Assembly: GCA_964019425.1 (NCBI GenBank)
Contig: OZ025801.1
Coordinates: 1,178,001-1,242,000 of the forward strand
From: Flectonema sp. DT1601
Lineage: Eukaryota > Euglenozoa > Diplonemea > Diplonemida > Diplonemidae
Direction of reading: 5' to 3'
DNA: 64,000 nucleotides
The notes under the pieces were generated by a model. The model had not been told where the DNA came from. It saw nothing but the letters and a program-made list of their open reading frames with translations, and did no database searches. The position numbers and the translations under genes are program-made. Below, piece after piece: positions 32,498 through 62,592 of the stretch; positions within the stretch are counted from its first letter, which is position 1; each line of letters opens with the position of its first letter.

Positions 32498-32621
32498 GCG
32501 CCTCACAGCGCAATCAGTTTCCGTGTCGCATCCCCCATTGTCTCGAAAAAGTGAACGGCCACCCAGTAAGGGCAGCGCCTAAGCAATTATAGTAGTAACA
32601 AAAAGAAGGAGAAACACAGTA

Positions 32622-33755
32622 GTGAAACACTCAAAAAAAAGCGGACGTGTGACACCGGACTGCGAACATCGCACAGGGCCCGAACAGGCAGAGACACCAA
32701 CAGGGGCTGACTCGCAACCGGGACGGGACAAACCGCCGACGGAGTCGAACGCGGAGGAGACAGCGTCGGCCGGTGGGATCGAGCAACAAGAATCAGAGAG
32801 CACACAACAGGAAATCAAAGTGCACGAAGATTCGAAGCAAGAGACCGTGACCCGACTCGCTGACGGAGAGGCGATACCTGTGCTGCCTGACTATGAGCTC
32901 CTGCAGGCAGAATTTGAGAAGGGAACATCGACGGCGGAGGCACGTGCTGAGAGGGGGCGGCAGGAGGAGGAGGTTAATGTAGTAAAGAAGCCAGCCGAAG
33001 GAACCGAGCCACAAGAGTCAGAAAGCGCCCAACAGGAAAACAATCTGCTGGAAGACTCGAAGCTTGCAACCAAGACTGGGTGCGATGATGCAACACCGGT
33101 GCTGCTGGAGGAAGGGAGTTCCCCTCGAACCGTGTTGGATGAACAGACGGCGAAGGATCACGCAGGGGACGGCATGCGGCTGCAGCGAGCTGTGTCGTCG
33201 GAGACATCAGACTCCGAAATGACATGCATGGACACAGATGTGACGAATTCGGGCGATGATGACACCTCAACATGCTCGGCACCGTCGGAAGATCCACCTG
33301 AGCTGGGAAAGTGTCTGTGTGGAGACAGATGGCTCCCGAGGAACTTTAGGAGGAGACCCTTGGCTAGTAATGGGTGGTGCAACAGATGCCGCAGGAAGAG
33401 ACTGAAGGGTACGTTGATGGTAAACTGTAGCAAATGCGACTTCGACCAATGCTGTGATCTGGCCGCGCTGAAAGCCAAACTCGCCAAGGAGGCGAAAAAG
33501 ACGAAGACGAAGAGAAGGAGAGCCCATGACAAGGCGCGGAAGGGGCCGGCTGGAGCTGACCGGGACCTTCTGTATCTGAGTAGTACAGACGCGTCGTCGT
33601 CGGGTTCGAAGACATTAGGGAACTTTGCGAGAGAGCTGGTGAGACGGCAGAGTAATAGAGGTAGGCTGCGGAAGCAAGTGTTTGGAAACAAGAGGAGAGT
33701 AGGAACAGGGAGCCTAACACGGTCATGCTCAGGTAACGAAGAAGACGACGACTAG
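32622..33755 (+). CDS. GC-rich Cys-cluster protein, possible LINE ORF1
   Basis: A 377-codon open frame with Glu/Gln-rich N-terminal two-thirds (two related blocks ESESTQQEIKVHEDSK and ESESAQQENNLLEDSK). A Cys cluster follows: CLCGDRW...WCNRCRRKRL...CSKCDFDQCC, likely zinc-binding. The C-terminus is basic. The frame has no ATG after its upstream stop (TAA at 32580) until about codon 180, so initiation is at a non-ATG codon or by splicing, or the 5' end is lost. GC content and style match the 34335-42857 frame. It may be the nucleic-acid-binding ORF1 of the same LINE, or the body of a separate poly(A)-tailed unit (A tracts at 33789 and 33899). Confidence 0.55.
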   Translation: MKHSKKSGRVTPDCEHRTGPEQAETPTGADSQPGRDKPPTESNAEETASAGGIEQQESESTQQEIKVHEDSKQETVTRLADGEAIPVLPDYELLQAEFEKGTSTAEARAERGRQEEEVNVVKKPAEGTEPQESESAQQENNLLEDSKLATKTGCDDATPVLLEEGSSPRTVLDEQTAKDHAGDGMRLQRAVSSETSDSEMTCMDTDVTNSGDDDTSTCSAPSEDPPELGKCLCGDRWLPRNFRRRPLASNGWCNRCRRKRLKGTLMVNCSKCDFDQCCDLAALKAKLAKEAKKTKTKRRRAHDKARKGPAGADRDLLYLSSTDASSSGSKTLGNFARELVRRQSNRGRLRKQVFGNKRRVGTGSLTRSCSGNEEDDD

Positions 33756-33925
33756 GAAGAAGGAACATGTGAAAAAAAGTGAAAGGGAAAAAAAAAAAAA
33801 AAAAAAAAGGGTGAGCAAAAGAAAAGAACCAATGCGTGCCCAGGGAACACTGCGAACGAGCTTACTATACTACTCAGGGGTTAAAAAGAAATGGGGAAAA
33901 AAAAAAAAAAAAAAAAAAAAAAAAA

Positions 33926-34122
33926 GCAAAACAAAACGTGACCTTGTGAGCCATCATGAGTTATAATTTACTTATCTTTTCTTCGCCATGGCGACGGGTA
34001 ATCGTGGGACCTGTAAAACCAGCTTAAGACTGTTGATGTGGTTTATATTTTTAGCACGCATTCATACATCATAAGGATCGCTGGTTCCGAGGGTTTGCTC
34101 TCCCACTTACCTGCCTCTCTAT

Positions 34123-34127
<5 letters not shown>
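33926..34127 (+). repeat. 202-bp repeat, copy 1
   Basis: Begins GCAAAACAAAACGTGACC immediately after a poly(A) tract and ends in CTATCCCTC followed by poly(A). It is nearly identical to 43640-43841, differing at few positions (for example GAGCCATC versus GAGTCATC). Best read as the 5' UTR segment of the LINE family. Confidence 0.9.
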
Positions 34128-34165
<38 letters not shown>

Positions 34166-34276
34166 ACTCCACACACACGTACAGGGCTAACAAGGAGAAG
34201 AGCAGGTAAGTCGATTGTCTTTTTTCGGGTTCCATACACAAATCATCCACAGCGAAGAGAACGGAAAAGGAAGAGT

Positions 34277-34331
<55 letters not shown>

Positions 34332-34334
34332 AGA

Positions 34335-37300
34335 ATGGAGAAAACAATGTTACTGTGTGGGTACGTGCTGCTGTGGGCACTACTAAGTGGAACGAGGGCG
34401 CAACAGACGTCCGGAGTGGGTAAGCAGAGGTTAGCCCCAGTGCCAGGCGGATGGCACACCCCTCTTTTCACAACGCTGGACAAAGGCCCACTGTTTTCAT
34501 CGCGCATCAGCCGACGCGTAACACGCCCGATCCCCCCGCACCCATTTATAACCCCCAACAGCTCAAACAGCCCCAACAATACGGCAAGCGGACGCGCTTT
34601 CCAACATGGACGAGAGGGGGTGTGGGTCCCGCGGAGGGGAACGGAAACGGCCGGGAACCGGGTGAGGCGAGACCACCCAAAGCCACCTCCAGACAAGGGA
34701 GGAAGGGAGCTCCTGAAGAGGGCGTCCCCGAAAGTGGCGTCCAAGGCGGCAAGGCGGCTGGAAAGGAGGAGGAGGAAGCTGCTGAAGGAACGGCAGGAGA
34801 GGTGGGAGCGGTGGGCGGGAGAGTTGGAGAAGTTCCACGCCAGGCGAGAGAGGTTCCGCGCGGAGACAGAGAGGCCAAGGAAGAACAAGGCGGAGACACC
34901 GAAGAAGCGACGGGCAGGGCCCGAAAGGGACTGGACAAAGCCAGGAGGGCACAAGGCGGAGCCCAGACCATGGTATGCGAGGCCGTCAGACCTGGCAGGA
35001 GGAGGGCAAAGCAAGGAGAGGACGAAGTGCCCGGTGGTGGGGTGCAGCGTCTGGGTGAGGGGTGACCTAGAGTACCACTTCAAACAACACCTGAAGGGAG
35101 TGGTACCGGGGGAGGTAACGGCCCAGATGGCATCCGACAGACTCGGAAAGCAGATCTGCAAGGCCTGCGGGGAGCTGAGTACCGGATTGGTGCACCAGAC
35201 AGTGAGGTGTCGGGAGATGTTGGACCTCAAGGGACGGCTGGGGGTAGCGACGGGACCCACGCCGGAACTGGCAAGCCTGAAGTGCGAGGGAGCAAAAGTA
35301 TTCCGGGTGATTGGGGATGGGAATTGCCTGTTCAGGAGTGTGTGCCAACTCCTAGAGACGCCAGAGGGGTGGAAGGGCAGACATGGAGAGCTCCGCAGGA
35401 GAACGGCAGGATACCTGACCAAGAACAGGGAAAGGTTCGAGGTCTTCTTCCAGGACGCGGACGCATTCGGAGTATATGCGAGGGCGTTGGAAGAGGATGG
35501 ATGCTGGGGCGATGCATTGGCCCTACAGGTCATGGCAGAGGACCTACAGTGCCGCTTCGTCGTCGTGGTGAGGACGGAAACGCTGGTGGTGGAAGGGCCA
35601 TCGGACCCGAAGCGGACGCTGGTCTTGACCCTGCAAAACGGGTGCCACTACGACCCAGTGGAGGCATCCGAGGACTGCGTCGCGCGGCTGCTACAGAGCG
35701 CCCGGAGGTTGGAGTTAGTGTCGCCAGGCCCGCTGTCGCAAGCAGCAGGAGGCGAGCCGGCAGTGCTGCAGACAGCCTCCCGACAGGCCCAGCGGCACGA
35801 GTGCCCCCAAGCGGAGTGCCCGAAACACAAGGGAGGCTTCGAGGAGTGGGCGGAGCTCCTAAGACACGTGGACGAGCACGCATTCAGTGGCAACCCGCTG
35901 ACGCATGGACAGTTGGCGAGGCTAGGCCTCCGGGAATGTCCGGTGTGCTGTGGGATCATCGGGCAGGACCAGCCGATGCATCCGGGGTGCAGTGAGAAAC
36001 TGCAGAAGGTCCAACTGGGGGACGTGTACACGGCGTTCCGGAAGCGGGTGCTGGAGAGCCAGAGCTTCCCCTCTTTGGAGGAAATAGCCAGCAGGAGGAG
36101 GCCGATAGCGAAGAAGCTGCCGGTGTCCCTGTTGCATCATCTGGGGCGAGCACTCAAGCTGTCGCTCGACCTAGTCGTGGAGCGGAACGATGAGTGGGCA
36201 TGGAAGCTGCTCTTGATGCTCCCGACATGTACACTGCGGAGGATACGGAGGGGGGGTAGGAGGTTGTCGACCAGCGATCTGACAGGGGCGGTCGACGACC
36301 TGCAAGCATGGATTCGGGGGGAATTTGAGGGACTGTGGAAAGCGGCGGCCCCCCGCAAGGCGACGGGAAGGCCAGCAGTGAAAGAGGCGGGGCAAAAAGG
36401 AAGGAACGACAGGGCCACGTCGCTAGCGAGGGAGGGTTGCCTGTCACAGGCGATCTCGGCCCTAGACGCGCCGCCGCCAGCAGAACGAACCGAGAAGGTG
36501 CTGGAGCAGATGCGCACCCTACACCCGAGGGCGAGCGGACCCCCATCGGCCACGGCAGGGCAGGAGGTGCAGATAGCAGAGGTGGAGCTGCTAGCATGCC
36601 TACGCTCCTTCCACAGGGGGTCGAGTGGAGGGCCTTCGGGCCTCGCGCCGCAACACCTGAAGGACGTGGTGGAGCGGGGTGAGGTGCCGGGGCTGGTAGC
36701 CTCGATCACGGAGGTGGTGAGGATTCTGGCGAACGGGAGGGCGCCGCGGGAAGTAGCGCCGCTGCTGGCGGGGGCGAACCTGACGGCGCTGGAGAAAGAA
36801 GGGAAGCCGGGGGAGCACCGGCCAGTCGCGGTGGGGGAAACATGGAGGCGGCTGGTGGCGAAGATCCTGTGCGGGGCATATAGGTCCCAGGCGAGGAGCT
36901 CGTTGCTAGAAGTGAGACAGCTGGGAGTAGCGGTGTCGGGGGGAGTGGAGGCGGCGGTGCACACCCTGCATGAGTTCCGCGCGGAGCACGCGCTCTCGTC
37001 ACAGAAAGTGTTCGTGAAGATAGACTTCTCGAACGCCTTCAACTGCGTGAAGAGGGGGGCGTTCCTGGATTCGACGAGGGATACCCTGCTGGAGAGCTGG
37101 GTCAGCTGGTGTTACGGAGCGCCGACGTGGTTGCTGTTTGGGGACGAGAGGCTGAGCTCGGAGGAGGGCGCTCAGCAGGGGGACCCGTTGGGTCCCTTGC
37201 TGTTCTCGCTGGCAATCAAGCCGGCGCTGCAGAAGGTGTTGGAGGCGAAGCCGGAGTTGGCGTGCTTCTACCTGGACGATGGGCTGGTGGCGGGCACCCT

Positions 37301-40300
37301 GGAACAGGTAGACAAGGCCCTCCAAATCCTGCAGAAGGAGACGGCGGAGCTGGGGCTGACGCTGAGGCCGGACAAGTGCCAGACGCACGTGCTCGACTCA
37401 GCCCAGAACACCCTGCCCTTGGGGTGGGGGTTGGAAGGGATGAGACCCCCACTGTACAACGGGGACTTCCTGGGGGCACCGTTCGGGACGGAGGAACACT
37501 GCCAGGAGTTCGTCGACAGGAAGGTGGCGCAGCTGGAGAAGAAAGCGGAGCTGCTAGCAGACCTGCAGGACCGGCAGGTGGCCATGGTGCTCCTAAGGCA
37601 ATGCATGGGCTTCTGCAAGGTGACCCACCTGATGCGATGCTGCACGCATGGGAAAATGGACACCTCGATGCGGAAGGTGGACGAGCTGATGAGGTCCACG
37701 GCGAGCCGAGTGTTGGGCCTGACACTGGAGGGGCCAAAGTGGATGCAAGCACAACTGCCGACCCGGATGGGGGGATTGGGGCTGCGGTCATGTGCAGAGC
37801 ACAGGGGAGCAGCACTATTGGGATCCCTGGAATTAGTCCAAGGGGTGAGCAAGTCACTGTGGGAGGGGTTCAAGGGGGTGCTGATGCCAGCACTGAAGAA
37901 GGGGTTGAACCTCGCCCTCCCGGAGGAGCTAAGGATAGAAGAAGACGGGCCGGGGCCGAACCCCCAGAGGCTGTCCTCGGCGAAACTGGACCAGGTCAAG
38001 AGAGACTGCCTGCTGGCGGGGGCGAATGACCCGCGCGATAAAGGGAGGCTGCTCTCCCTGCGCATGGATAAGGCGAGCGCATGGCTGCAACAAGCAGATG
38101 AAGAGTGCGCGATGGACCCAGAGACGTTCAGGATCGCATGTGGGATGCGATTGGGCGCAGCGCTGTTCGCGGAAGGGGCAGTATGCAGGATATGCTCAGG
38201 CCCACAGGATAGGCAGGGATACCATGCCTCAATCTGTATCAAAAACGGCCACGTGCACCAGCGACACGAGAGGGTGAAGGAGGAGTTCATCTCCATCTTT
38301 AAGCAGGCGGGATTGCCGCTGCTGAGAGAACCCAGCCACCTACTGGGACCCAACAAGCAGAGACCGGGGGACTGGTACTGCCAAGAGGGGCTGAGGGAGG
38401 GGAGAGGCAGAGCCTTCGACATCACAGTGGTAAACCCGGGGAAAATTAAATTGTATAAAACCCCGGGGCAAGCCGCGAGAGAAGCAGAGTCCCTGAAAGG
38501 GAACAAGTACGCGGAGCAGTGCACGAAACACGGGATTAATTTCTCGACAATTGCGCTGGAAGCGTACGGAGGGATGGGACGGGAAGCAGTGGGGACCCTG
38601 AAGAAGTTGGTGCAGATCTGCGCAACGAACTCGACGGTGCCACACCGGGAGATCGCGGGGGAGATGGCGAGGAGGATCTCGACATCGGTGGTAGTGGCGA
38701 CGGCGGAAGCACTGAGAGCGAGGGAGGCGTCGGTGGCGATGGACTCAGTGAACCCATTGCCAAGGACGAAACCGCCGCCCGAGATGACGGAGAAGCCGAC
38801 ATCACAAGAGAGAGAACCAAGACCGAGAGCGGAAACGGAAGAGATCCAGCAGCCGGAAGTAATGCGACAGTCGGCAGGACCGCCCCCGACGATGAGGGGT
38901 TTGCCGAACATCGGGAACTCCTGCTACCTCAACGCGTCCGTACAGTGCCTGCTGAAGGGCACGGCACTGACACAAGTGCTGACGGGGAAGGAGGAAGTGG
39001 GGATGTCGGGCCTCCTGAGTGGAGTGGTCAAAGGGAGTGGAGAGTGCCTGGAGAAGCTGTCCGAGATGTTCGACCCGCTACAAGACAGGCGGCAGGGGGA
39101 GGTAGTAGGAACCCTGACGTCCATAGTAGACGCCCTGTTGGAGGAGAAGAAAGAGGTGTGCGAACCGTTGTTCTCGGCAGTACAGCTGAAACAGCTGGTC
39201 TGCACGGGATGTGCGGACGCCTCCGGATCGACGGATGAGTTGACGCTGATCCCACTGTGTGGCCGTACACCACAAGTGAGGCTTCAGCCGACGAAGGAGA
39301 GAGTCGAGCGGTCCTGCGAGAAGCTGTGCGGCAGCAATGAGGCCACGCTGGAAGAGAGTTTCGCCTCGCTCCCAAGCTCCTTGATCTTCCAGAGAGAAAA
39401 GCAGGACACGCAAGGGTCCTTGGGATGGGAAGAGCGCTTCCAGGTGCAGGTCGGGGAGAGGGTGATGACGTACCAGCAAACGGGAGCGATCGCACACCTC
39501 GGGAGTGACAACGCGGGGCATTACGTGTCATACACGTGGGACGGAGTAGGCTGGCAGAAGCAAGACGACAAGGCAATAAGCCAAGTGTCGACAGAGGAGA
39601 TCCACGGGACGAAACCAGTAGTAGTGGTCTACTCGAGGGTGGAGGGATCGACCCAAGAGGACGTCGGGGTGCCGGTGAGATGGATTCCGGTGGCGAACAA
39701 GGACCGGATGGAGGTACGCGAGGCACCGCCGTCGGAGGAGGACACCGCGGGGTACACGTCCAGGGAAGAGGCGGAGTGTGTCCTCCGGACGCGAGTAGTA
39801 GGGGGGCAGACGCAGCGCAAGCTGCTCTTACTGGTATCGAGCGTCTGGAACGCGGAGATGGAGAAGCTGGGGGCGGCAGCATGCCTGATACACATGGGAA
39901 CGCTCGACAGGAGGTTCACGTGGTCGGGCTGCCTACCGACATGGGACGAAGCGACTGCGGAGTACGTGGCAGCGCTGCTAGGGCTCAACGCGATCAGGGA
40001 GAGATCGCAACTGCTGGGGGGTGAGACACAGATCGAGGTGGTCACACCGCAGCAGGGGTGGGGAGCCGAGCAGCAGGAGGCGCTGAAGTTGGTAGCGCTC
40101 CCGTCGGTGATAGAACACCAGGTGACGGAAAGCTCACGAGGGGTGGAGAACCTGGCCCTCTGGGAAGCGGAATCGGCGGCATGGGACGAGCCGGTGGAAC
40201 TCTCGGAGGACGGGCTCGACTACTTGGTGATCGAGCTGGAGATGAATCTGGGGCTGTCCCAATTGAGGGGAAAGGCGGCGGAACCGGATGAATCCCAGTC

Positions 40301-42857
40301 GCTCCCAGGAGGGTCGACGGCATCAGGCGAAGACAGACCACGAGCCGAAGCGCCAGCCCAGGTGGAAGCGCAGACGACGGAAGCACAAGGAGCGGAAGCA
40401 GTAGGGCTGAGAGACGAGCCAGCACAGGAAGTGGGACAACCCGAGGAAAAAGAGCCCCCATCCCCCGACCCCCCGTCGAAGGAGGAGAAGCTGTATGCGG
40501 TGGCGGTGGGATGGAAACCGGGAGTGTATGCATCGTGGGAGGAGGCGAAGGCACAGACGGAAGGGTGCCCGAATGCGACACACCAGAGTTTCTCCTCCAG
40601 GAAGGAGGCGGACAGGTTCGTAGAGAGGTGGCAGCCGGAGACCAGGGAACCGACCCGGGCCACGGAGGGAGTCAGCCCACGTAAGTGGTACGCAGTGGCG
40701 AGGGGCAGGGCGGTAGGCCTGTTCCAATGCTGGAACGAGGCGAACTCGATGGTGTCAGGCTACGCGGCGGCGAGACACAAGAGTTTCGCAAGCAAGGGGG
40801 AGGCGGAGGGATACCTCCGAACCCACCTGCTGGGGGAGGTGGTTGGCGAAGTAGGGACGAGGTACACCTTGGTGTACGCATGCGAGGAAGACCCGGTAAC
40901 GGGCCGTCTGGGGGCGGCGGCGAGCTGGTTGGACACACACCGTTTCGAGGTGTTGGGCACATGGTCAGCTGGCCTGCCAGCGGGAAACACACACTGGGGG
41001 CGATACTTCGCAGCCCTGGTGGGGCTGGTAGCGGCCAAGGCGTGTGGAGGCCTCGTCCCAGCGGAGGCATCCCTGCTGCTGCGAGGAAGCACGACACACT
41101 GGTCGACGGACCAGAGAGAGGTGCTGGAGGAGGCGGAGTTGATGGGGAGGCGTACGACGCTGGTGGAGATGCCAGAGAGGATGAGAACACACGCGACGGA
41201 GGAGGCTGAAAAAGCGGCGAAGGAGGGCTCGACCTCAGTGACGGAAGCCGTGATGAAGGTTTTCACAGAGGGGGCAAAGAACTGCCTGGGACACGGGACA
41301 CAGACGGGTCCCTTCACGGTGCGGTGGGAGGGAAGACAACTGCGTCTGGAACCCCAGTACACAGAAGAGGGGACGGGATCGTCAGGCGGCCGAGAGTCGG
41401 TGGAAGGAGAAGACGCGAGGGTAGAGGGCCGAGACGAGCAGAGCCCGGTCCCAACCCCGAAGGGGGCCGTGCAAAGGGTAGAGGCGGGAGTCCTGGAGTT
41501 GAGCTCGGAAGGGTCGGAGGGAGATGACGATAGATCATCCTCCCCAGCGACAGGGCAGGACGAAGGGAACGGTTCCATGTCGGGAGGCTCCTTGGGGAGT
41601 CCAGGGACGTCGGACATGGAAGCGGAAGAACAGACGGACGAAAGGGACCAGTCAGTAGACCCGTCGGCAGCAGAGACCTCAGGCGAAAACCATCACCTGG
41701 CCGAGGACCTGCAAGCCGAGAAGGGGGACGAGCTGGACGAGACGTCCCACCACTCAGGAGAGCCACCGTCGTCAGACGGCATGGACGGAGTGGAGGGGTT
41801 GGAGGACCTGGAAGACTCACAGTCGGAGATGGAAGTCGACGGAGAAAATGTGACGGAAGGGTCAGTAGTCCAGTACGTCGAGGAGACGTCAGAGGACGTG
41901 GTCCAGGTGGCAGAGTCGGACACAGAGGAGGAGGGATCGTCAGACTCCCAAATGACCATGACGGTCGATGAACAGGAATGGGAAGAGGGAGCGGCGCCCG
42001 AGGGGAACGCAGGTCAGATGGCCTGGATGCTGGGACTACACCCAGAAGGGGGGAACGCGGAAACACGACGGGAGGGCCAATCGGAGCCCCTTTCAAAGCT
42101 GGTGAACTCAGGCGAAACAAAACCAATGGCCGAGAGATCCAGTTTGGGGGCGAAGATGGGACCACGCGCAGTGGGTAGTGACGGGAGCGGGGAAGACGCA
42201 GAGAGATCGCCGGGCACGGTGTCGACACCGAGCACGAGAGGGAGGACGAAGTACAGAAAGGGAATGGAGGAGGAGAGGGAGGAGTGTGTGTCGCCGAAGA
42301 CAAATACGGGAAGGGGACGCACGAGAGGCCGGAAGGCAAAGACGGGGGCAAAGGGGGCCGGAAAGGAGGACCCAAGTCCGCAGGTGTTGCAGGCGGAAAT
42401 GGGAGAGTCCACCCCGAGCTCAGGTGAACGGCAGGCGAGGAGGAGGTACAGGAAGGGAGAAGAGAGGGAGAGGATAGAGGTTCTCTCCCCAGACCCGAGC
42501 AGGAAAGCGAAGAGGAAGAGACGCAAGCAGAAGGAACCGGAGCCAGTGGAGGGCACCACGAGGGAACAGGCGCCGCGGAGTTACAACAGGAAACCCACAC
42601 TGCGTCGGGTAGGTAAGGGAGACACACCCGACACAATGGGGTACGCACACGGGCCCCCGGGCTCCCTGACCTCGTTCACGGACGCGGGCGTACGCCCGGA
42701 GCCGGCGGAACGAGACGGACAAGGTGTGGCAGGAGCAGAGTTGGTCACAAGGTCGTCGTCACAGAGTGAGAAAAGCACCCAAGGAGAGATGAGGGAGAGA
42801 GAAGGGGATCCAACGCGAAGGGTCCTGGACTTCTCGTCGAAAGGGGGAAGGCGCTAG
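34335..42857 (+). CDS. LINE polyprotein: Zn finger, OTU, RT, RLE, USP and RNase H1-type binding domains
   Basis: 2,840 residues from ATG 34335; the frame also reads upstream through a poly(A) tract, which I discount. It opens with a leader-like hydrophobic stretch (MLLCGYVLLWALLSG). Domains by nucleotide: C2H2-like finger 35028-35095. OTU cysteine protease, with VIGDGNCLFRSV at 35305-35340 and CHYDPV at 35642-35659. Two further Cys/His clusters 35800-35995. Reverse transcriptase 36580-37400, with KIDFSNAFNCV, QQGDPLGPLLF and FYLDDG at 37266-37283. CCHC knuckle 38184-38237. Restriction-like endonuclease, RPGD at 38361 and AFDITV at 38411. USP deubiquitinase 38898-39630, Cys box GLPNIGNSCYLNASVQC and His box NAGHYVSYTW. 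Two RNase H1-type hybrid-binding domains at 40489-40632 and 40681-40836 (KLYAVAVGWKPGVYASW; KWYAVARGRAVGLFQCW). RNase H-like segments lie before and after them but lack the usual first Asp. A long acidic then basic tail ends it. Confidence 0.85.
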   Translation: MEKTMLLCGYVLLWALLSGTRAQQTSGVGKQRLAPVPGGWHTPLFTTLDKGPLFSSRISRRVTRPIPPHPFITPNSSNSPNNTASGRAFQHGREGVWVPRRGTETAGNRVRRDHPKPPPDKGGRELLKRASPKVASKAARRLERRRRKLLKERQERWERWAGELEKFHARRERFRAETERPRKNKAETPKKRRAGPERDWTKPGGHKAEPRPWYARPSDLAGGGQSKERTKCPVVGCSVWVRGDLEYHFKQHLKGVVPGEVTAQMASDRLGKQICKACGELSTGLVHQTVRCREMLDLKGRLGVATGPTPELASLKCEGAKVFRVIGDGNCLFRSVCQLLETPEGWKGRHGELRRRTAGYLTKNRERFEVFFQDADAFGVYARALEEDGCWGDALALQVMAEDLQCRFVVVVRTETLVVEGPSDPKRTLVLTLQNGCHYDPVEASEDCVARLLQSARRLELVSPGPLSQAAGGEPAVLQTASRQAQRHECPQAECPKHKGGFEEWAELLRHVDEHAFSGNPLTHGQLARLGLRECPVCCGIIGQDQPMHPGCSEKLQKVQLGDVYTAFRKRVLESQSFPSLEEIASRRRPIAKKLPVSLLHHLGRALKLSLDLVVERNDEWAWKLLLMLPTCTLRRIRRGGRRLSTSDLTGAVDDLQAWIRGEFEGLWKAAAPRKATGRPAVKEAGQKGRNDRATSLAREGCLSQAISALDAPPPAERTEKVLEQMRTLHPRASGPPSATAGQEVQIAEVELLACLRSFHRGSSGGPSGLAPQHLKDVVERGEVPGLVASITEVVRILANGRAPREVAPLLAGANLTALEKEGKPGEHRPVAVGETWRRLVAKILCGAYRSQARSSLLEVRQLGVAVSGGVEAAVHTLHEFRAEHALSSQKVFVKIDFSNAFNCVKRGAFLDSTRDTLLESWVSWCYGAPTWLLFGDERLSSEEGAQQGDPLGPLLFSLAIKPALQKVLEAKPELACFYLDDGLVAGTLEQVDKALQILQKETAELGLTLRPDKCQTHVLDSAQNTLPLGWGLEGMRPPLYNGDFLGAPFGTEEHCQEFVDRKVAQLEKKAELLADLQDRQVAMVLLRQCMGFCKVTHLMRCCTHGKMDTSMRKVDELMRSTASRVLGLTLEGPKWMQAQLPTRMGGLGLRSCAEHRGAALLGSLELVQGVSKSLWEGFKGVLMPALKKGLNLALPEELRIEEDGPGPNPQRLSSAKLDQVKRDCLLAGANDPRDKGRLLSLRMDKASAWLQQADEECAMDPETFRIACGMRLGAALFAEGAVCRICSGPQDRQGYHASICIKNGHVHQRHERVKEEFISIFKQAGLPLLREPSHLLGPNKQRPGDWYCQEGLREGRGRAFDITVVNPGKIKLYKTPGQAAREAESLKGNKYAEQCTKHGINFSTIALEAYGGMGREAVGTLKKLVQICATNSTVPHREIAGEMARRISTSVVVATAEALRAREASVAMDSVNPLPRTKPPPEMTEKPTSQEREPRPRAETEEIQQPEVMRQSAGPPPTMRGLPNIGNSCYLNASVQCLLKGTALTQVLTGKEEVGMSGLLSGVVKGSGECLEKLSEMFDPLQDRRQGEVVGTLTSIVDALLEEKKEVCEPLFSAVQLKQLVCTGCADASGSTDELTLIPLCGRTPQVRLQPTKERVERSCEKLCGSNEATLEESFASLPSSLIFQREKQDTQGSLGWEERFQVQVGERVMTYQQTGAIAHLGSDNAGHYVSYTWDGVGWQKQDDKAISQVSTEEIHGTKPVVVVYSRVEGSTQEDVGVPVRWIPVANKDRMEVREAPPSEEDTAGYTSREEAECVLRTRVVGGQTQRKLLLLVSSVWNAEMEKLGAAACLIHMGTLDRRFTWSGCLPTWDEATAEYVAALLGLNAIRERSQLLGGETQIEVVTPQQGWGAEQQEALKLVALPSVIEHQVTESSRGVENLALWEAESAAWDEPVELSEDGLDYLVIELEMNLGLSQLRGKAAEPDESQSLPGGSTASGEDRPRAEAPAQVEAQTTEAQGAEAVGLRDEPAQEVGQPEEKEPPSPDPPSKEEKLYAVAVGWKPGVYASWEEAKAQTEGCPNATHQSFSSRKEADRFVERWQPETREPTRATEGVSPRKWYAVARGRAVGLFQCWNEANSMVSGYAAARHKSFASKGEAEGYLRTHLLGEVVGEVGTRYTLVYACEEDPVTGRLGAAASWLDTHRFEVLGTWSAGLPAGNTHWGRYFAALVGLVAAKACGGLVPAEASLLLRGSTTHWSTDQREVLEEAELMGRRTTLVEMPERMRTHATEEAEKAAKEGSTSVTEAVMKVFTEGAKNCLGHGTQTGPFTVRWEGRQLRLEPQYTEEGTGSSGGRESVEGEDARVEGRDEQSPVPTPKGAVQRVEAGVLELSSEGSEGDDDRSSSPATGQDEGNGSMSGGSLGSPGTSDMEAEEQTDERDQSVDPSAAETSGENHHLAEDLQAEKGDELDETSHHSGEPPSSDGMDGVEGLEDLEDSQSEMEVDGENVTEGSVVQYVEETSEDVVQVAESDTEEEGSSDSQMTMTVDEQEWEEGAAPEGNAGQMAWMLGLHPEGGNAETRREGQSEPLSKLVNSGETKPMAERSSLGAKMGPRAVGSDGSGEDAERSPGTVSTPSTRGRTKYRKGMEEEREECVSPKTNTGRGRTRGRKAKTGAKGAGKEDPSPQVLQAEMGESTPSSGERQARRRYRKGEERERIEVLSPDPSRKAKRKRRKQKEPEPVEGTTREQAPRSYNRKPTLRRVGKGDTPDTMGYAHGPPGSLTSFTDAGVRPEPAERDGQGVAGAELVTRSSSQSEKSTQGEMREREGDPTRRVLDFSSKGGRR

Positions 42858-43227
42858 GGACTCCACGAAGGAGGTCTCAAGAGTCGAGGAAAAGACAGAG
42901 CCAAGACCCCAGAGCCAACCCAAAACACATGGTAGAGGACGAGGGAGAACAAGAGCGGGAGCGAGGTTAGAAACGTGACCAAAGCCCCCGCGAAGCAGGA
43001 GACACAACCTGCAACCAGACCCCCCCAAAAGAAAAAAAACCCCGGTCAACGAGGCAAACTCGGACCAAAACATGCTTTTCACCCCCCCCAGGAAACACCG
43101 ACCAGTGGAGCCAAAGGCCGCACACATATTATAAAAATCAAAGGCCGCCCCCCAACCCAAGAAAAGGATGAAAAACTTTCAAGCGAAAAAACTTGACGTC
43201 CGTACGCCCCAGAGATCAAAGGACGGA
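42858..43227 (+). other. LINE 3' non-coding region, unique part
   Basis: Between the polyprotein stop and the duplicated 3' UTR block. Purine-rich and GC-rich at first, becoming A-rich. CGTCCGTACG...GACGGACGAC near 43195-43230 can form a short hairpin. No coding sequence supported. Confidence 0.5.
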
Positions 43228-43587
43228 CGACTCACACCCCCTTCTTTCGCCCCATTTTATTTACTGGTACAGCGACAAATGTAAAGCTGGGTAGACGACG
43301 AATTATCTTTTGTGCACAGAGACAAGGGATCCATGAGAACAAAGGATCAAGAGAAGAAGGGCACATTCCCCATCCCAAACCCAGAAACATGAGAACTCAT
43401 TAAATTGAAGGGTCATGTCTTTTCAAGTCGAAAAATGCTTAAATGCTGAAGAAGACTGTCGTCCCCAGCTCGCGGGTTTTCCCTGTCGCTGTATGTCGAG
43501 ACAACGATCAGAGTCAGTAGAAAGATTGTACAAATTTGTTGTATAATGAGAAAGGACAAAGAGAGTAGTTTCCATTTTATCTTCCCG
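43228..43587 (+). repeat. LINE 3' UTR, copy 1
   Basis: 360 bp starting CGACTCACACCCCCTTC and ending TTTATCTTCCCG before about 51 A residues. It is nearly identical to 43850-44210. It is the 3' UTR recognised by the LINE reverse transcriptase, judged from its position before the tail. Confidence 0.9.
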
Positions 43588-43638
<51 letters not shown>

Positions 43639-43640
<2 letters not shown>

Positions 43641-44223
43641 CAAAACAAAACGTGACCTTGTGAGTCATCATGAGTTATAATTTACTTATCTTTTCTTCGC
43701 CATGGCGACGGGTAATCGTGGGACCTGTAAAACCAGCTTAAGACTGTTGATGTGGTTTATATTTTTAGCACGCATTCATACATCATAAGGATCGCTGGTT
43801 CCGAGGGTTTGCTCTCCCACTTACCTGCCTCTCTATCCCTCAATAAAAACGACTCACACCCCCTTCTTTCGCCCCATTTTATTTACTGGTACAGCGACAA
43901 ATGTAAAGCTGGGTAGACGACGAATTATTTTTTGTGCACAGAGACAAGGGATCCATGAGAACAAAGGATCAAGAGAAGAAGTGCACATTCCCCCTTCCCA
44001 AACCCAGAAACATGAGAACTCATTAAATTGAAGGGTCATGTCTTTTCAAGTCGAAAAATGCTTAAATGCTGAAGAAGACTGTCGTCCCCAGCTCGCGGGT
44101 TTTCCCTGTCGCTGTATGTCGAGACAACGATCAGAGTCAGTAGAAAGATTGTACTAATTAACAGTATAATGAAAAAGGACAAAGAGAGTAGTTTCCATTT
44201 TATCTTCCCGAAAAAAAAAAAAA

Positions 44224-44264
<41 letters not shown>
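43639..44264 (+). mobile_element. Half-LINE / SINE-like non-autonomous derivative
   Basis: Consists of the 202-bp 5' segment (43640-43841), a short AATAAAAA joint, the 361-bp LINE 3' UTR (43850-44210) and a poly(A) tail (44211-44264, one T interruption). It has no coding sequence. It sits directly in the poly(A) tail of the complete LINE, same orientation. This is an internally deleted LINE presumably mobilised by the full element, analogous to half-LINEs known in other eukaryotes. Confidence 0.8.
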
Positions 44265-44716: not shown

Positions 44717-44995
44717 CTACGTGTCACCTACACAATTCCAAAGTCTCAGGTTGGATGCTTGTTCCATCCACCTGATCAACATCGCTACTGAAGGAAGCCA
44801 GCTGGTGGCAAAGATTGAGCCAAGACTGGCAGGAATGCCGTTGATGAGGATTAGATCACTTGATCGGTCCCATTTGCCTGTCAATGTAGAAAAGCCAAGG
44901 ATTTCATATCTGGCTGCATCGAGTTTCTGTGATGGACAGCCTACGAGTAGGTGGAGTTGGTTGGATGGAGCGCTATGGCAGAATGGACATTTGAA
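44717..44995 (-). pseudogene. LINE C-terminal zinc-knuckle fragment
   Basis: On the minus strand a short open frame contains KCPFCHSAPSNQLHLLVGC followed by PSQKLDAARYEIL. This is the CxxC...HxxxxC knuckle typical of the C-terminal region after reverse transcriptase in LINEs. Only about 95 codons remain, so it is a truncated relic, unrelated in detail to the large LINE. The frame runs into the 8-bp satellite. Confidence 0.5.
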
Positions 44996-45035
44996 CCCGC
45001 AAACCCGCAAACCCGCAAACCCGCAAACCCGCAAA
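44996..45035 (+). repeat. (CCCGCAAA)5 satellite
   Basis: Five perfect tandem copies of the octamer CCCGCAAA. The same octamer forms a longer array at 45575-45774 and a short one at 51780-51803. Confidence 0.95.
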
Positions 45036-45574
45036 CCTCACCTTTACAGGGAACAGCTCAAATGGCATAGCGATATCACAGCCTTGATTTAGCGCTTGGC
45101 GCCGACTTCTTGTAAAGAGATTTTACTTTATTTCGCCGTTATTCTCTGGTGAATATTGTTCTTTCTACTTTCAGGTTTGGCTGGCTTTGCTTTAAAGAAA
45201 ACAACTTTTTTGTGTGACGGCGCCCCCGTCCCGTGGCCATGCATGCCTTTCGCAGCCTGGTCCGGACGATTTCGCCTCTGTGGCGCCCTGCTACCCCCGT
45301 CGCAAATGAATATACTTCGTACGTGGACAATACTTCAATTATCGATTACTATAATTCACAACCATCATCTCCCATCACAGCTGCGATATACTTTATGGAT
45401 GAGACACGACGGCATGTCAGAATTCGATATAGCTGATCAATTTCAATTATCCTTAATTGGATTCCGTCATTCTCCTTTAGTATTAATTGCTTGCTTACTC
45501 CCTCTCTGTTTTCTATTTCATTATTACTTTTACATTTCTATAGCAGATATCGCATAGAAAATGCAGAGCGGTTC
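45036..45574. other. Segment between two octamer arrays
   Basis: About 540 bp, no gene recognised. Its right end (GAAAATGCAGAGCGGTTCC) closely resembles the right end of the tyrosine-recombinase element at 51781 (GAGAATGCCGAGCGGTTCC). It may therefore be the remnant of another member of that family, also abutting the satellite. Confidence 0.5.
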
Positions 45575-45774
45575 CCCGCAAACCCGCAAACCCGCAAACC
45601 CGCAAACCCGCAAACCCGCAAACCCGCAAACCCGCAAACCCGCAAACCCGCAAACCCGCAAACCCGCAAACCCGCAAACCCGCAAACCCGCAAACCCGCA
45701 AACCCGCAAACCCGCAAACCCGCAAACCCGCAAACCCGCAAACCCGCAAACCCGCAAACCCGCAAACCCGCAAA
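45575..45774 (+). repeat. (CCCGCAAA)25 satellite
   Basis: Exactly 200 bp, 25 copies of CCCGCAAA with no visible interruption. It abuts the left end of the tyrosine-recombinase element. Because 8 is not a multiple of 3, every frame is open and gives false Asn-Pro-Gln-Thr-Arg-Lys repeats. Confidence 0.97.
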
Positions 45775-45997
45775 CCAACACTCAGACTGGGAACTGCACA
45801 AAAGGCAAGTGAAGTACGATATACTCTTATAATATTTTCCTTTTCATTGATCAACATTAAATGTTGTTTAAGTATCATTTTTGTTCTCTTGTTATTATTT
45901 CAGATTTATCATTTTACTGTTCTCTTATCATTATTTCATTGTACTCATTTATTCAGGCTAGGAAGGGTCTTAACGCAAAGCGTTTTTAAGAATTAAT

Positions 45998-48136
<2,139 letters not shown>

Positions 48137-49051
48137 ATCCTGGCCGTAAACGAACCCGTAGAGGGCGTCGCGGGAGGAGGGGCGGCAAGTGGACCGCGGC
48201 CTCTCCTGGTCGGCGCGGTGCCAGCTGGAGTGCAGCGTGGGTCAACGAGTGTCGCCGCACCGGGACCTTGCGCGAGTACGCGAGAGGGATTCCGAAAACG
48301 AAGATGCGCTGCGCAGGTGGAAGTTCCGTCGGTTTTCGGGAAGGTGGTCCTCGAACACATCCGGAGGGACGATCGACACCGTGGAGACACGATGGAAGTA
48401 AGGGTGGACCACGACACAGCGTTGGAACGCCTGGGGGTGGTCGTCGCGTCGATGTGGGCGGACGAAACCTCATCGAAGCGCAGAAACCTCTGGGGTCGGT
48501 TGGAACAATGGGCGTTGGCTCAGCGTCTGCCAATGTCTGCCGAAACAGCTGCGTTGTTCGTGCTGGCCACAGACGTGAGACCGCAGGGACAGCTGCAATA
48601 CGCAAAGGCGCTGTCCGGGATCTACCGACACCTTGGTCTGGAAAACCAACCGCTCCTCAGCCTGGCAAGCGCGCTGAGGGCAAAAGGGGAACGTTCACCG
48701 CTCTCCCCGGTCCACTCGCAGCTCGCGCGATCCCGTTCCTCAGCAACTCCGCAGCGTGCCTCCCAGCGAAAGATGAAGTAGACGACGAGCGACTCAACTT
48801 CCCCACCTCCGGGTAAAAGGTCAAGTTCCACACCTGATCGAACCTATCCCTCGCAACATCAGTCATCCTACTTCTGAGTCCGTCAACATCCATCGTCTCA
48901 ACGCCACTCACATGCAAAGGCGACGAACGTTCCTCCGCCGTCGACGGCAGTCTTGTCCGCTTGCCCCTCCTGATGATGCTGTGCGTCGTGCACGGAGACA
49001 GCCGCGCCACCGCTTCCATCGCCTCACCTTCGTCGTCAACGTCCTCCGCAA

Positions 49052-49753
49052 CTACAGCAGGATGGTGACCTTCCACGTTTGCAGCGCTCGGGCGGTGTCC
49101 ACGAAATCCGACGAATACCTGATCGTTGTTGCAGAGATGTTGGTTCCGTCTTCGGCGTGCTTCAACAGTCGTGATACCAGGTACCCTTCTGTGAGCCTTC
49201 CCTCGGCCATCGCTCGCATCAAAGCCGCGGCGGCGCCTCGTTTTATCGAGTGGCCCGTAAAACCCCGCATTCCCGGAGTCCCCCGCCACAACTCTGCCAA
49301 CCGCTCGGTGGTGACGTCCGTCAGCCGATCGAAAGGAGCCAGCTCCCGAAACAAGCTTGCGATCTCCCCGACCAGATCCCCCCGCAAGACCGCCCAACGG
49401 GACGGCACGAACGGGTTTGCTCTCCGGTGTTTTGGCGACGTCCCCCAGTCCACGATCACTTCCGCGTCCTCCACCAGAACGAAATGCGCCGACGTCAGCA
49501 CGTGCACTTCTCCCCACCGGGAAGCCGACTTCCAACACACCAGCGCCGCGAGCCTCAAACGTCCCGTTAGACTTCTCGCCCAACCCAACAGCTGCTCCTT
49601 TGACATGGGAACTGCTTGTGAACGCGGAACGGCCGCCCATTCACCGTGGTGGAGGAGAAGCCGGAGGGACTGCGGCAGCGGTTCATCCTTTGGACGAGGG
49701 ATGCGAATGGTTGGGCCGAAGAAGCTTACGAAGCTCACGTCCCGCTGTTCCAC
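49052..49753 (-). CDS. Tyrosine recombinase part of the YR retroelement (fossil)
   Basis: Read from the minus strand, it shows tyrosine-recombinase family signatures: an Arg in a WKSASRWGEV context, GHSIKRGAA (HxxR box), RLLKHA and a later IRY. A reversed recombinase orientation is known in some DIRS-group elements. Part of the fossil element; it may be incomplete. Confidence 0.6.
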   Translation of the reverse strand: MEQRDVSFVSFFGPTIRIPRPKDEPLPQSLRLLLHHGEWAAVPRSQAVPMSKEQLLGWARSLTGRLRLAALVCWKSASRWGEVHVLTSAHFVLVEDAEVIVDWGTSPKHRRANPFVPSRWAVLRGDLVGEIASLFRELAPFDRLTDVTTERLAELWRGTPGMRGFTGHSIKRGAAAALMRAMAEGRLTEGYLVSRLLKHAEDGTNISATTIRYSSDFVDTARALQTWKVTILL

Positions 49754-50953
49754 ATCTCAAAATATTTGGATCGGGTTCTGACCGAGGTTGGCTCGACACG
49801 GGATTTCAAGACAGGTTTTTATGCTATTGAAATCCCGGAGGAAGCGAGAGATCTCTTCCGATTCAAGACGACGGAGGGTGAGTGGTTCGAGCTGTGCCGT
49901 TTGCCGATGGGGCATGTCTGCGCGCCGGAGCTGATGCACTCTTTGGCAGCGGCGGCTGCGGGGGATCCAGCTTACGTGCGACGTCAGTGGGCTGCCAGGG
50001 ATGTTGGCGTTGACGTGTTCATCGACAACATTCGGTACACGGGGACGGAAGGCGCGGTGTTGGCGGCGACGGTGAATCTCGATGCTGCGGCGGCGGACTT
50101 CCGTCTTACATGGAAGCCGTCTGACTCGAATACGGCGGTGAGCAAGTACACATTTTTGGGTGTGGACTTTGACCACGAGGCGTCGTCGGTCATGCCGTCA
50201 GCGAAGATCCGGCGGAAGTTGGCGGCGGTGGACTTGTCGTCTGTGACGGCGAGTCAGTTGGAGTCGATGGCTGGGAGGCTGATGCATGCGTCGGCGATCG
50301 CTGCGGCGTCTCCGGGGAAATACTGGTATGCCTTGAAGTTCTTGCGGAGGTTGTCGAACGGTTTGAACCGCGGGGTGAGGCAGGTGCATGATGTAGTGTC
50401 GGTCCCTGTTTCGGTCGCGATGGAGTTGCGCAGTTGGTCGGCTGCCGCTGTGACGAGGAGGGTGGTTGCGCGGGAGCCAGATCAAGATGAGTTCACGACG
50501 TTCGTGGATGCGTCGTTGAGAGGTTGGGGTGGAGTGGTTGTGAACGACAGGACGGCCGAGGTTACTGTCTTGGGGGATGCGTGGGGTCCTTCGGAACAGT
50601 CGCTCCACATCAATGTTCTCGAGGGGATGGCGTTCAGGAACACGGTCTCGGGGATGCCGGTTTGCTGTGATGGCAAGCGAATGTCCATCTGGATCGACAA
50701 CACGTCAGTCATTGGCGTAGCACGGAAGAAGATGTCAGTCCGATCGCAACGGCTGAACGATGCGGTCGTGCGGGCCATCGACGTGCTGGCAGACAGAAAA
50801 GTTAGTTTCTGTATTGCCTATGTGAAGTCAGCGCTGAACCCAGCAGACTTGCCATCGAGGGTGGATCCAGGAGTTATAGGCTCATCGGAGCACCAGCGGG
50901 AAGTTGAACTTGCGGTGAGGGCCTTTCTGACTCGCGATGTGGTGGTGGTGTGA
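49646..50953 (+). CDS. Reverse transcriptase/RNase H part of the YR retroelement (fossil)
   Basis: Reverse transcriptase signatures (ELCRLPMGHVCAPELMH; a strand-turn-strand VDVFIDNIRY region; TFLGVDFD) are followed by an RNase H domain (FTTFVDASLRGWGGVVV). The order RT then RH matches DIRS-group and VIPER-like elements. Fossil; probably partial at its start. Confidence 0.65.
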   Translation: MVEEKPEGLRQRFILWTRDANGWAEEAYEAHVPLFHISKYLDRVLTEVGSTRDFKTGFYAIEIPEEARDLFRFKTTEGEWFELCRLPMGHVCAPELMHSLAAAAAGDPAYVRRQWAARDVGVDVFIDNIRYTGTEGAVLAATVNLDAAAADFRLTWKPSDSNTAVSKYTFLGVDFDHEASSVMPSAKIRRKLAAVDLSSVTASQLESMAGRLMHASAIAAASPGKYWYALKFLRRLSNGLNRGVRQVHDVVSVPVSVAMELRSWSAAAVTRRVVAREPDQDEFTTFVDASLRGWGGVVVNDRTAEVTVLGDAWGPSEQSLHINVLEGMAFRNTVSGMPVCCDGKRMSIWIDNTSVIGVARKKMSVRSQRLNDAVVRAIDVLADRKVSFCIAYVKSALNPADLPSRVDPGVIGSSEHQREVELAVRAFLTRDVVVV

Positions 50954-61792: not shown

Positions 61793-61807
61793 CAACTTAA
61801 TGTACAA

Positions 61808-62592
61808 TGTAATAATAAAGTGTGCTACTGACTGATGTTCTGTCCTGTGCCAAAAAAAAAAAAAAAAATGAAATTGAAAAAATGGAATTCAAAGATTTTT
61901 CTTTTACTTTTATTGGTTAGATGTGACAAAGTGGAAATAACTGCAACAAAACTTAACTATAACAAAAAGACAGCTTGGCACCTAAAATTTTCTCCACTCA
62001 GGAATTTATGAAGAGGTCAAGAGATAACTATAAAAAATGTGTTCCCATCTTTTTTAGGAGATCTGTAGCAAAAACCTATAGCAAAAAAAATTGAAAAAAT
62101 AAAATTTTTCAGAAAATATTATAAAGGAAAAATTTTTTCTGAAGAATTTTTTTTTTACCAAATTGGCAACCATACACCTAAATTTCAAAACCATACCAAA
62201 AAAAAATTTTCATCACATTTTATACTTTAAGAAAATGGTTACCCATCTTTTCTAGACCTGCTTGGGCACAAAAATCCAGCATTTTTCCTTAGGCAAAAAT
62301 TTTTCTTTGTGTTCAAAAAAAAAAAAAAATGAAATTGCTGCTGTAACAAAGGCAAATAACTGCAAAAGTGAAAGAATTAGAGTGAAAAAAAGATCTGTAG
62401 CAAAAAAATTGAAAAAATAAATTTTTCAGAAAATATTATAAAGGAAAATTTTTTTCTGAAGAATTTTTTTTTTACCAATTGGCAACCATACACCCACAAT
62501 TTCAAAACCATACCACTTACTAACAAAATTTGTACTCTTTTCCTTGCTGTTTTCTTCTTACTAATTTTCCTGGTTGAAAAACACAAAAAATA
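61808..62592. other. A/T-rich repeats upstream of Helitron gene
   Basis: Non-coding. A block with TTTTTCAGAAAATATTATAAAGG...GGCAACCATACACC occurs at about 62098-62182 and again at about 62411-62493. The block GGCAACCATACACCTAAATT to TTTTCTAGACCTGC at 62164-62262 recurs at 63902-64000. Confidence 0.7.

What the first reader, a model, noticed from the sequence alone, without database searches (positions are those of the whole stretch)
34335..42857. LINE polyprotein carrying two unrelated deubiquitinase folds (OTU and USP) plus RNase H1-type hybrid-binding domains
One uninterrupted frame holds, in order, zinc finger, OTU (DGNC...H), reverse transcriptase (YLDD), CCHC, restriction-like endonuclease, USP (Cys box GLPNIGNSCYLN, His box GHYVSYTW) and two YAVxxGxxxGV(Y/F) hybrid-binding domains. 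OTU proteases are known in a few LINEs (from memory, Dualen/RandI). I do not know of a USP domain or an OTU+USP pair in one. The element could remove ubiquitin from its own protein or from host restriction factors. The hybrid-binding domains may hold the RNA:DNA product.
Basis: partly seen in the sequence, partly recalled or inferred. Interest (0 to 1): 0.95.

Follow-up and report, generated by a model that had tools for sequence, protein, structure and literature searches.

The report
Retrotransposon with two deubiquitinases built in
A jumping gene in a single-celled flagellate encodes, in one long protein, the enzymes that copy and paste it plus two unrelated enzyme folds of the kind that remove ubiquitin tags, which suggests that it carries its own answer to the cell's tagging system.

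Summary
One stop-free frame (ATG 34335 to stop 42857, 2,840 aa) has significant Pfam matches to OTU, reverse transcriptase, USP and two RNase H1-type hybrid-binding domains; zinc fingers, CCHC and endonuclease are motif-level. It is no misassembly: the host genome has 22 full-length USP matches at 97-100% identity, and 27 open frames in four families (RT down to 42% identity) hold OTU, RT, USP and hybrid-binding matches together. A fifth family has USP without a detected OTU. The USP catalytic residues are kept in a representative of each family; USP is under purifying selection (omega 0.32), weaker than RT (0.05). The host is a diplonemid-like euglenozoan; full-length copies begin with its spliced leader. 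A related USP-bearing element occurs in Diplonema papillatum, annotated only as SLACS. My searches of a held paper library listed no LINE with a USP. Best reading: a recently active LINE lineage with two cis-acting deubiquitinases that shield its RNP from ubiquitin-dependent removal; activity and substrates are inferred. A domain that occurs twice beside the hybrid-binding domains remains unidentified.

The parts
34128..43640 (+). 5'-truncated copy of the LINE (family A), from an internal 5' UTR A-tract to its poly(A) tail
   Evidence: A copies match the window from this point; the 12 fetched copies that could be compared share about 1 kb of 5' sequence that the window copy lacks; A-runs
34335..42857 (+). 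single ORF, 2,840 aa
   Evidence: 13 of 13 copies fetched over the whole ORF are open from the same ATG for 2,837-2,841 aa
35028..35090 (+). N-terminal C2H2-type zinc finger (CPVVGC...HFKQH), motif only
35295..35660 (+). OTU domain; D328, C331, H438
   Evidence: Pfam OTU E 1.9e-12; OTUD3 E 7.5e-11; residues kept in family B2
35802..35990 (+). second zinc-finger block before the RT, motif only
   Evidence: conserved Cys/His columns with B2
36795..37391 (+). reverse transcriptase, YLDD at 37269
   Evidence: Pfam RVT_1 E 7.4e-17
38184..38238 (+). CCHC motif (C1284, C1287, H1297, C1301)
   Evidence: motif, also in B1, B2, P0011, P0012 and P0018
38361..38654 (+). restriction-like endonuclease (RPGDW...FDITV), motif level
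   Evidence: similar motif in the relatives printed
38895..39632 (+). USP domain; N1525, C1530, H1729, D1744, two Cys pairs
   Evidence: Pfam UCH E 2e-11; PDB; five-family alignment
39750..40091 (+). first copy of an unidentified domain
   Evidence: 29% identical to the second copy, E 1.2e-4
40488..40814 (+). two RNase H1-type hybrid-binding domains (about 40488-40619 and 40683-40814)
   Evidence: Pfam Cauli_VI, 2 stretches, E 2.5e-27; PDB RNase H1
40857..41204 (+). second copy of the unidentified domain; RNase H-like only by eye, no catalytic acids recognised
   Evidence: alignment A6; no RNase H match in Pfam or PDB
42858..43640 (+). 3' UTR and poly(A) tail
   Evidence: the 3' end recurs at 40 places (40 of 109 candidates were scored)
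32583..34124 (+). 3' end (C-terminal ORF 32583-33755, UTR, poly(A)) of a related LINE, family D, directly upstream
   Evidence: same ORF end and UTR in L050; the UTR piece lies 2,429 and 2,431 nt after a family D USP at C11 and C25; assignment to D is inferred from this
43641..44264 (+). 5'-truncated family D 3' end (43641-43843), then 5'-truncated family A 3' end

Best explanation
Shown: a multi-copy, recently copied, RT-bearing non-LTR retrotransposon of a diplonemid-like euglenozoan whose single ORF includes an OTU and a USP with their catalytic residues in place and under purifying selection. Inferred: both work as deubiquitinases in cis. The trans-spliced element mRNA is translated; the protein binds its own RNA; OTU and USP, with different chain or substrate preferences, strip ubiquitin from the nascent RNP and from proteins at the target, so that the RNP escapes proteasomal removal and reaches chromatin; the endonuclease nicks the target, often beside another LINE's poly(A) tail, and the RT copies the RNA from its poly(A) end; the hybrid-binding domains hold the RNA:DNA product. 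The identity of the element is near certain (about 0.95); the confidence below is for the cis-deubiquitinase mechanism.
For: Domain matches. 22 USP matches over the whole query at 97-100%, on 16 contigs. OTU, RT, USP and hybrid-binding matches in one and the same open frame 27 times: 16 family A (one with the last match cut), 2 B1, 3 B2, 6 C. Cys, His and Asp/Asn of the USP kept in one representative of each of families A, B1, B2, C, D; Cys, GHYVSYT and a QDD in 22 of 22 A copies. omega B1 vs B2: RT 0.05, RLE 0.05, OTU half plus zinc finger 0.07, hybrid-binding 0.20, USP 0.32 [0.21-0.44]. USP in the Diplonema element P0011: Pfam E 2.7e-7, hhalign to the five-family USP profile probability 97.2, E 3.9e-11, same RT-RLE group, support 97/98. 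Spliced leader at the start of two A copies.
Against: No biochemistry or expression data. USP omega is like that of the C-terminal tail (0.34 [0.24-0.46]), and among A copies distinct USP variants were 9 synonymous and 9 non-synonymous, so its constraint is weak. The QQDA-type box of families C and D is altered in A and B. Family C's OTU match covers query residues 3-103 of 165 only, so its His was not seen, and no OTU was detected in family D: the pair is not shown in every family. None of the 120 proteins listed has a precomputed OTU domain.
Confidence: 0.5

Rival explanations
1. OTU and USP act mainly as maturation proteases that cut the 2,840-aa polyprotein into working parts.
For: One long fusion with weakly conserved spacers between conserved modules (spacer omega 0.47); cysteine proteases recur in other RLE LINEs (Ulp1 in NeSL and one Utopia, passages of PMC4640811).
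Against: USP and OTU enzymes normally cut after a folded ubiquitin (recalled); the Pfam scan of the ORF shows no ubiquitin-like module.
Confidence: 0.18
2. The deubiquitinases act on ubiquitinated histones or repair factors at the insertion site rather than on the element's own RNP.
For: The protein should act on chromatin; a role of OTU/Ulp1 domains of transposons in activating repair factors was proposed for Ginger elements (PMC2836005, passages).
Against: No substrate information; nothing seen in the sequence points to histones.
Confidence: 0.2
3. The domains are captured host sequences kept as ubiquitin-binding or spacer modules without catalysis.
For: USP constraint is modest (omega 0.32) and its QQDA-type box is altered in families A and B.
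Against: Catalytic Cys, His and Asp/Asn are kept in a representative of each of five families and Cys, GHYVSYT and QDD in 22 of 22 A copies.
Confidence: 0.08
4. Misassembly or chance fusion of a host USP gene to one LINE copy.
For: None found for this element. A barnacle protein with RT plus a USP2-like domain (P0115) may be a fusion of that kind.
Against: 27 open frames in four families hold the set; a homologous USP lies in a Diplonema element.
Confidence: 0.01

Closest known systems
SLACS-annotated LINE of Diplonema papillatum (P0011, 2,324 aa)
   Same: Same RT-RLE group (97/98, midpoint-rooted tree); RT, CCHC, RLE, long spacer, then a USP
   Different: No OTU or hybrid-binding match; its gene model starts just upstream of the RT, so an OTU further up cannot be excluded; the deposited name says only 'Retrotransposable element SLACS 132 kDa protein'
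NeSL and Utopia non-LTR retrotransposons
   Same: RLE-type LINEs; [quoted passage not shown]
   Different: Ulp1 is another protease family; OTU and ubiquitin do not occur in that text
Ginger1 transposons, Helitrons and a Trichomonas transposase with OTU, Ulp1 or C19 domains
   Same: Mobile-element proteins with ubiquitin-family proteases, one of them C19, the USP class (PMC2836005, passages)
   Different: DNA transposons; that paper states either OTU or Ulp1, not both, in a given Ginger1 transposase
RNase H1 (hybrid-binding domain)
   Same: Both hybrid-binding domains match its N-terminal domain
   Different: The neighbouring domain gives no RNase H match and shows no recognisable catalytic acids

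Membership tests
RLE-type non-LTR retrotransposon | RT of the LINE type | tested here: met
   Pfam RVT_1 E 7.4e-17; best solved match is an R2 protein
RLE-type non-LTR retrotransposon | CCHC and restriction-like endonuclease C-terminal to the RT | tested here: inconclusive
   RPGD...D(I/V)T-type motif after the CCHC in the relatives printed; no profile for this domain matched or was run apart
RLE-type non-LTR retrotransposon | Poly(A) 3' end and 5'-truncated copies | tested here: met
CRE/SLACS clade | RT phylogeny inside CRE | tested here: inconclusive
   Groups with Diplonema proteins annotated SLACS; no curated CRE reference sequence was available
CRE/SLACS clade | Insertion into spliced-leader RNA genes (known for SLACS, recalled) | tested here: inconclusive
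   5' flanks read in the window, L046, L048, L050 and L052 are another LINE's tail, not an SL gene; flanks of the other copies were not read
USP (peptidase C19) | Cys box, His box, third catalytic Asp/Asn, Cys pairs of the zinc ribbon | tested here: met
   the second Cys pair of family A has altered spacing
USP (peptidase C19) | Cleavage of ubiquitin conjugates | not testable with these tools
   needs an assay
OTU protease | DGNC box and catalytic His | tested here: met
   families A and B2; B1 and C seen only in part (L054)
RNase H1 | N-terminal hybrid-binding domain | tested here: met
RNase H1 | Catalytic RNase H domain | tested here: not met
   no RNase H match; catalytic acids not recognised

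The most novel reading that the evidence does not exclude
Diplonemid-type euglenozoans host an old lineage of LINEs that carry a two-enzyme deubiquitinase kit (OTU before the RT, USP after the endonuclease) as a standing counter-defence against ubiquitin-based restriction of retrotransposons, with a faster-changing USP tuned to a moving host target.
Probability: 0.35. Interest if true: 0.9.

Novelty: new variant of a known kind. Interest (0 to 1): 0.74.

Why it matters
Single ubiquitin-family proteases are known in some mobile elements, but why they are there is open. A LINE lineage that keeps two unrelated deubiquitinase folds in one protein, in several diverged families and with a homologous USP in a second species, makes the question testable: do retrotransposons need to reverse ubiquitination in order to move? 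It would also point to a ubiquitin-based restriction of retrotransposons in euglenozoans. The spliced leader at the start of full-length copies shows that trans-spliced mRNA can serve as the template.

Tried and rejected
Rejected: misassembly or single-copy fusion. Rejected: the 203-bp repeat on both sides as a SINE or as a specific target; it behaves as the 3' end of family D. Rejected for L050 and L052: insertion into an SL gene as the source of the leader there; the leader is followed by TTTTTTCCC..., not by the GT that I recall for SL introns, and the same sequence follows at both. Led nowhere: viral contigs (one stretch, no relative); comparison with the partial Diplonema protein P0004 (E 0.010 and hhalign probability 8.9), superseded by the longer P0011; OTU-like motifs by eye in P0018, not supported by Pfam or PDB; RNase H identity of the repeated domain. 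Left as a lead: P0115 (barnacle RT plus USP2-like domain), perhaps a gene-model fusion.

Limits of my numbers. omega is from a Nei-Gojobori script with 200 codon bootstraps; its 'OTU' row holds only the part of the OTU present in L054 (about its last 94 codons) plus the zinc-finger block, not the DGNC box. The tree used 42 rows that I picked plus A, B1, B2; 5 with odd spans were dropped, 37 kept; it is midpoint-rooted, has no letters of families C and D, and flags P0011, P0012 and P0016 for unusual composition. P0004 and P0011 are identical there.

Full report
Observation. The frame 34191-42857 has no stop; the ATG at 34335 gives 2,840 aa. Pfam finds, in order, OTU (327-413, E 1.9e-12), RVT_1 (821-1019, 7.4e-17), UCH/USP (1521-1766, profile 1-254 of 254, 2e-11) and two Cauli_VI hybrid-binding domains (2.5e-27), all above the curated cut-offs. 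PDB searches with window segments agree: OTUD3 (7.5e-11), USP15 (7.1e-07), R2 for the RT (3.5e-06). Profiles from three families give USP15 1.9e-13 and the RNase H1 N-terminal domain 1.1e-09. Zinc fingers, CCHC and endonuclease were seen as motifs shared with relatives. Catalytic candidates: OTU D328, C331, H438; USP N1525, C1530, H1729, D1744.

It is a repeated element. The host genome (89.5 Mb, 92 contigs) gives 84 USP matches; 22 of them cover the whole query at 97-100% identity, on 16 contigs, in open frames of 1,427-2,971 aa. Of 13 copies fetched over the whole ORF, 13 are open from the same ATG for 2,837-2,841 aa. Twelve of these could be compared upstream and all twelve share about 1 kb of 5' sequence that the window copy lacks; the thirteenth (L035) lacked the anchor word and was not compared. 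The window copy is 5'-truncated at an A-tract at 34128.

The architecture is conserved. Searching the genome with the OTU, RT, USP and hybrid-binding segment puts all four in one and the same open frame 27 times: 16 in family A (one with the last match cut short), 2 in B1, 3 in B2, 6 in C. Family names are mine, by identity to the window: RT 66-67% in B1/B2 and 42% in C; USP 31, 30, 27 and 25% in B1, B2, C and D; OTU 48, 46-45 and 38% in B1, B2 and C. The OTU match in C covers query residues 3-103 of 165, so its His region was not seen. Family D (C25, frame of 4,514 aa) has RT, USP and hybrid-binding matches but no OTU match at E 1e-3. Copies of one family are not independent of each other; the families are the stronger evidence.

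USP across families. Pfam E-values: 2.9e-13 (B1), 2.9e-09 (B2), 1.8e-16 (C), 2.6e-19 (D). In the five-family alignment, one representative each, the Cys box, His box and QDD (QND in D) are kept; C and D keep a QQDA box which A and B have altered. All 22 full A matches keep the Cys, GHYVSYT and a QDD; one has N to D two residues after SCY.

Selection. Between B1 and B2, omega is RT 0.05, RLE 0.05, OTU part plus zinc finger 0.07 (the DGNC box is outside L054), repeated domain 0.11, C-terminal zinc finger 0.18, hybrid-binding 0.20, USP 0.32 [0.21-0.44], tail 0.34 [0.24-0.46], spacer 0.47. So the USP is constrained but evolves much faster than the core and about like the tail. Among the 13 A copies distinct variants in the USP were 9 synonymous and 9 non-synonymous, against 31 and 8 in residues 501-1270 and 7 and 4 in the OTU.

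Host. A recalled euglenozoan spliced-leader core occurs 721 times exactly (0 for the reversed control), with tandem runs spaced 610 and 623 bp among the places listed. At L050 and L052 a family A copy starts with AACCAACGATTCTAAAGCTACAGTTTCTGTACTTTATTG right after another LINE's poly(A); its first two A cannot be told from the tail. It differs by two bases from 'Euglenozoa 14' in PMC3795323 (passages), which I recall as the Diplonema leader. At two more copies (C6, C1) the core lies at the same distance, 1.80-1.83 kb, from the shared 5' anchor, by coordinates only. The host is therefore a diplonemid-like euglenozoan of unknown species, and trans-spliced mRNA was the template of these copies.

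Neighbourhood. The window holds a head-to-tail array on one strand: 3' end of family D (32583-34124), the A copy, a truncated D end (43641-43843) and a truncated A end (to 44264). Of ten D ends fetched with flanks (the best 10 of 42 matches; two are in this window), six are followed directly by an A copy and four by other sequence. Insertion beside poly(A) tails seems favoured; how is not shown.

Relatives. With the OTU-RLE part, seven proteins passed among 8,000 scored candidates of limited length in a 5.8-billion set: one 100% identical (P0002, presumably the same species, its model starting after the OTU), three of Diplonema papillatum, one from Nymphon named SLACS, two unnamed. None of the other six has an OTU, USP or hybrid-binding match in Pfam. 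The USP to hybrid-binding part found only P0002. Starting from the Diplonema protein P0004, 144 proteins passed and 120 were listed; three of the 120 have a precomputed USP domain (P0002, P0011, P0115) and none an OTU. P0011, 'Retrotransposable element SLACS 132 kDa protein' of Diplonema papillatum, has RT and USP (Pfam 2.7e-7), and the USP matches the LINE USP profile (hhalign probability 97.2, E 3.9e-11). In a 37-row RT-RLE tree A, B1 and B2 group with P0011, P0004, P0012, P0016 and P0018 at 97/98. The label test in that tree did not give a single origin of the USP (4 labelled rows, 2 changes), but P0004 and P0012, counted there as without USP, end in or hold its first half. So the USP may be old in this lineage; whether Diplonema also has the OTU is unknown, because the P0011 model starts just upstream of the RT.

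The domain beside the hybrid-binding domains occurs twice in family A (29% identical, E 1.2e-4). By eye it recalls RNase H, but no search supports this and no catalytic acids are recognised.

Literature. Nine searches of the held library were run; five were aimed at proteases in LINEs. They listed 5 of 5, 15 of 524, 12 of 85, 12 of 13 and 12 of 436 papers. I saw listings, and passages of four papers. No LINE with a USP appeared in what I saw. Nearest: Ulp1 in NeSL and a Utopia element (PMC4640811, passages); OTU or Ulp1 in Ginger1, OTU in Helitrons, a C19 domain with a Trichomonas transposase (PMC2836005, passages). The main text of the Diplonema genome paper does not hold ubiquitin, USP or deubiquit (PMC10161547). 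Subscription papers and repeat libraries were not searched, so an earlier description cannot be excluded.

Mechanism. Shown: catalytic residues in place, constraint, co-occurrence, recent copying. Inferred: enzyme activity, cis action on the RNP, counter-defence. Two folds suggest two substrates or chain types. The polyprotein-processing and chromatin readings remain open.

Noticed in passing
53422-61888 (- strand): Helitron in two overlapping frames: Helitron_like_N (E 4.8e-42), PIF1 helicase (1.3e-43) and an OTU domain (2.7e-07).
   Followed up: partly
45974-50953 (+): Two ORFs without a Pfam match at E 0.001; the first is glutamine-rich, the second looks by eye like the RT of a tyrosine-recombinase retroelement.
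   Followed up: no
45575-45776 and 44994-45037: Tandem arrays of an 8-mer (CCCGCAAA, 25.2 copies, and the same unit in another phase, 5.5 copies), 100% matches.
   Followed up: no
34335-34395, and the L055 N-terminus: The LINE ORF of family A starts with its most hydrophobic 15-residue stretch (mean 1.96), and family B2 likewise (2.05): signal-peptide-like, odd for a retrotransposon.
   Followed up: partly
34128 and 43641: 5'-truncated copies begin at internal A-tracts behind another element's poly(A): microhomology at the 5' junction, or recombination between A-tracts.
   Followed up: partly
P0018 (public protein, 2,570 aa): Member of the same RT-RLE group with OTU-like motifs by eye on both sides of RT-RLE (NDCGY...HFEAV and AGDCAFEAL...GHYEPL); not supported by Pfam (both) or PDB (second only).
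   Followed up: partly
P0115 (Amphibalanus amphitrite, 1,157 aa): LINE-type RT and endonuclease motif followed by a USP2-like domain (E 1.8e-65); gene-model fusion or an independent capture.
   Followed up: partly
G000 C20 1248667-1286046, C16 1432462-1446807: Tandem spliced-leader runs of 610 and 623 bp; several spacings in C20 are larger by 1,085 bp, as if something had inserted.
   Followed up: no
1-29367: Eleven ORFs over 300 aa, all on the + strand, as in polycistronic euglenozoan genomes; two with DUF604 matches, one CAF1, one NOB1-like PIN.
   Followed up: no
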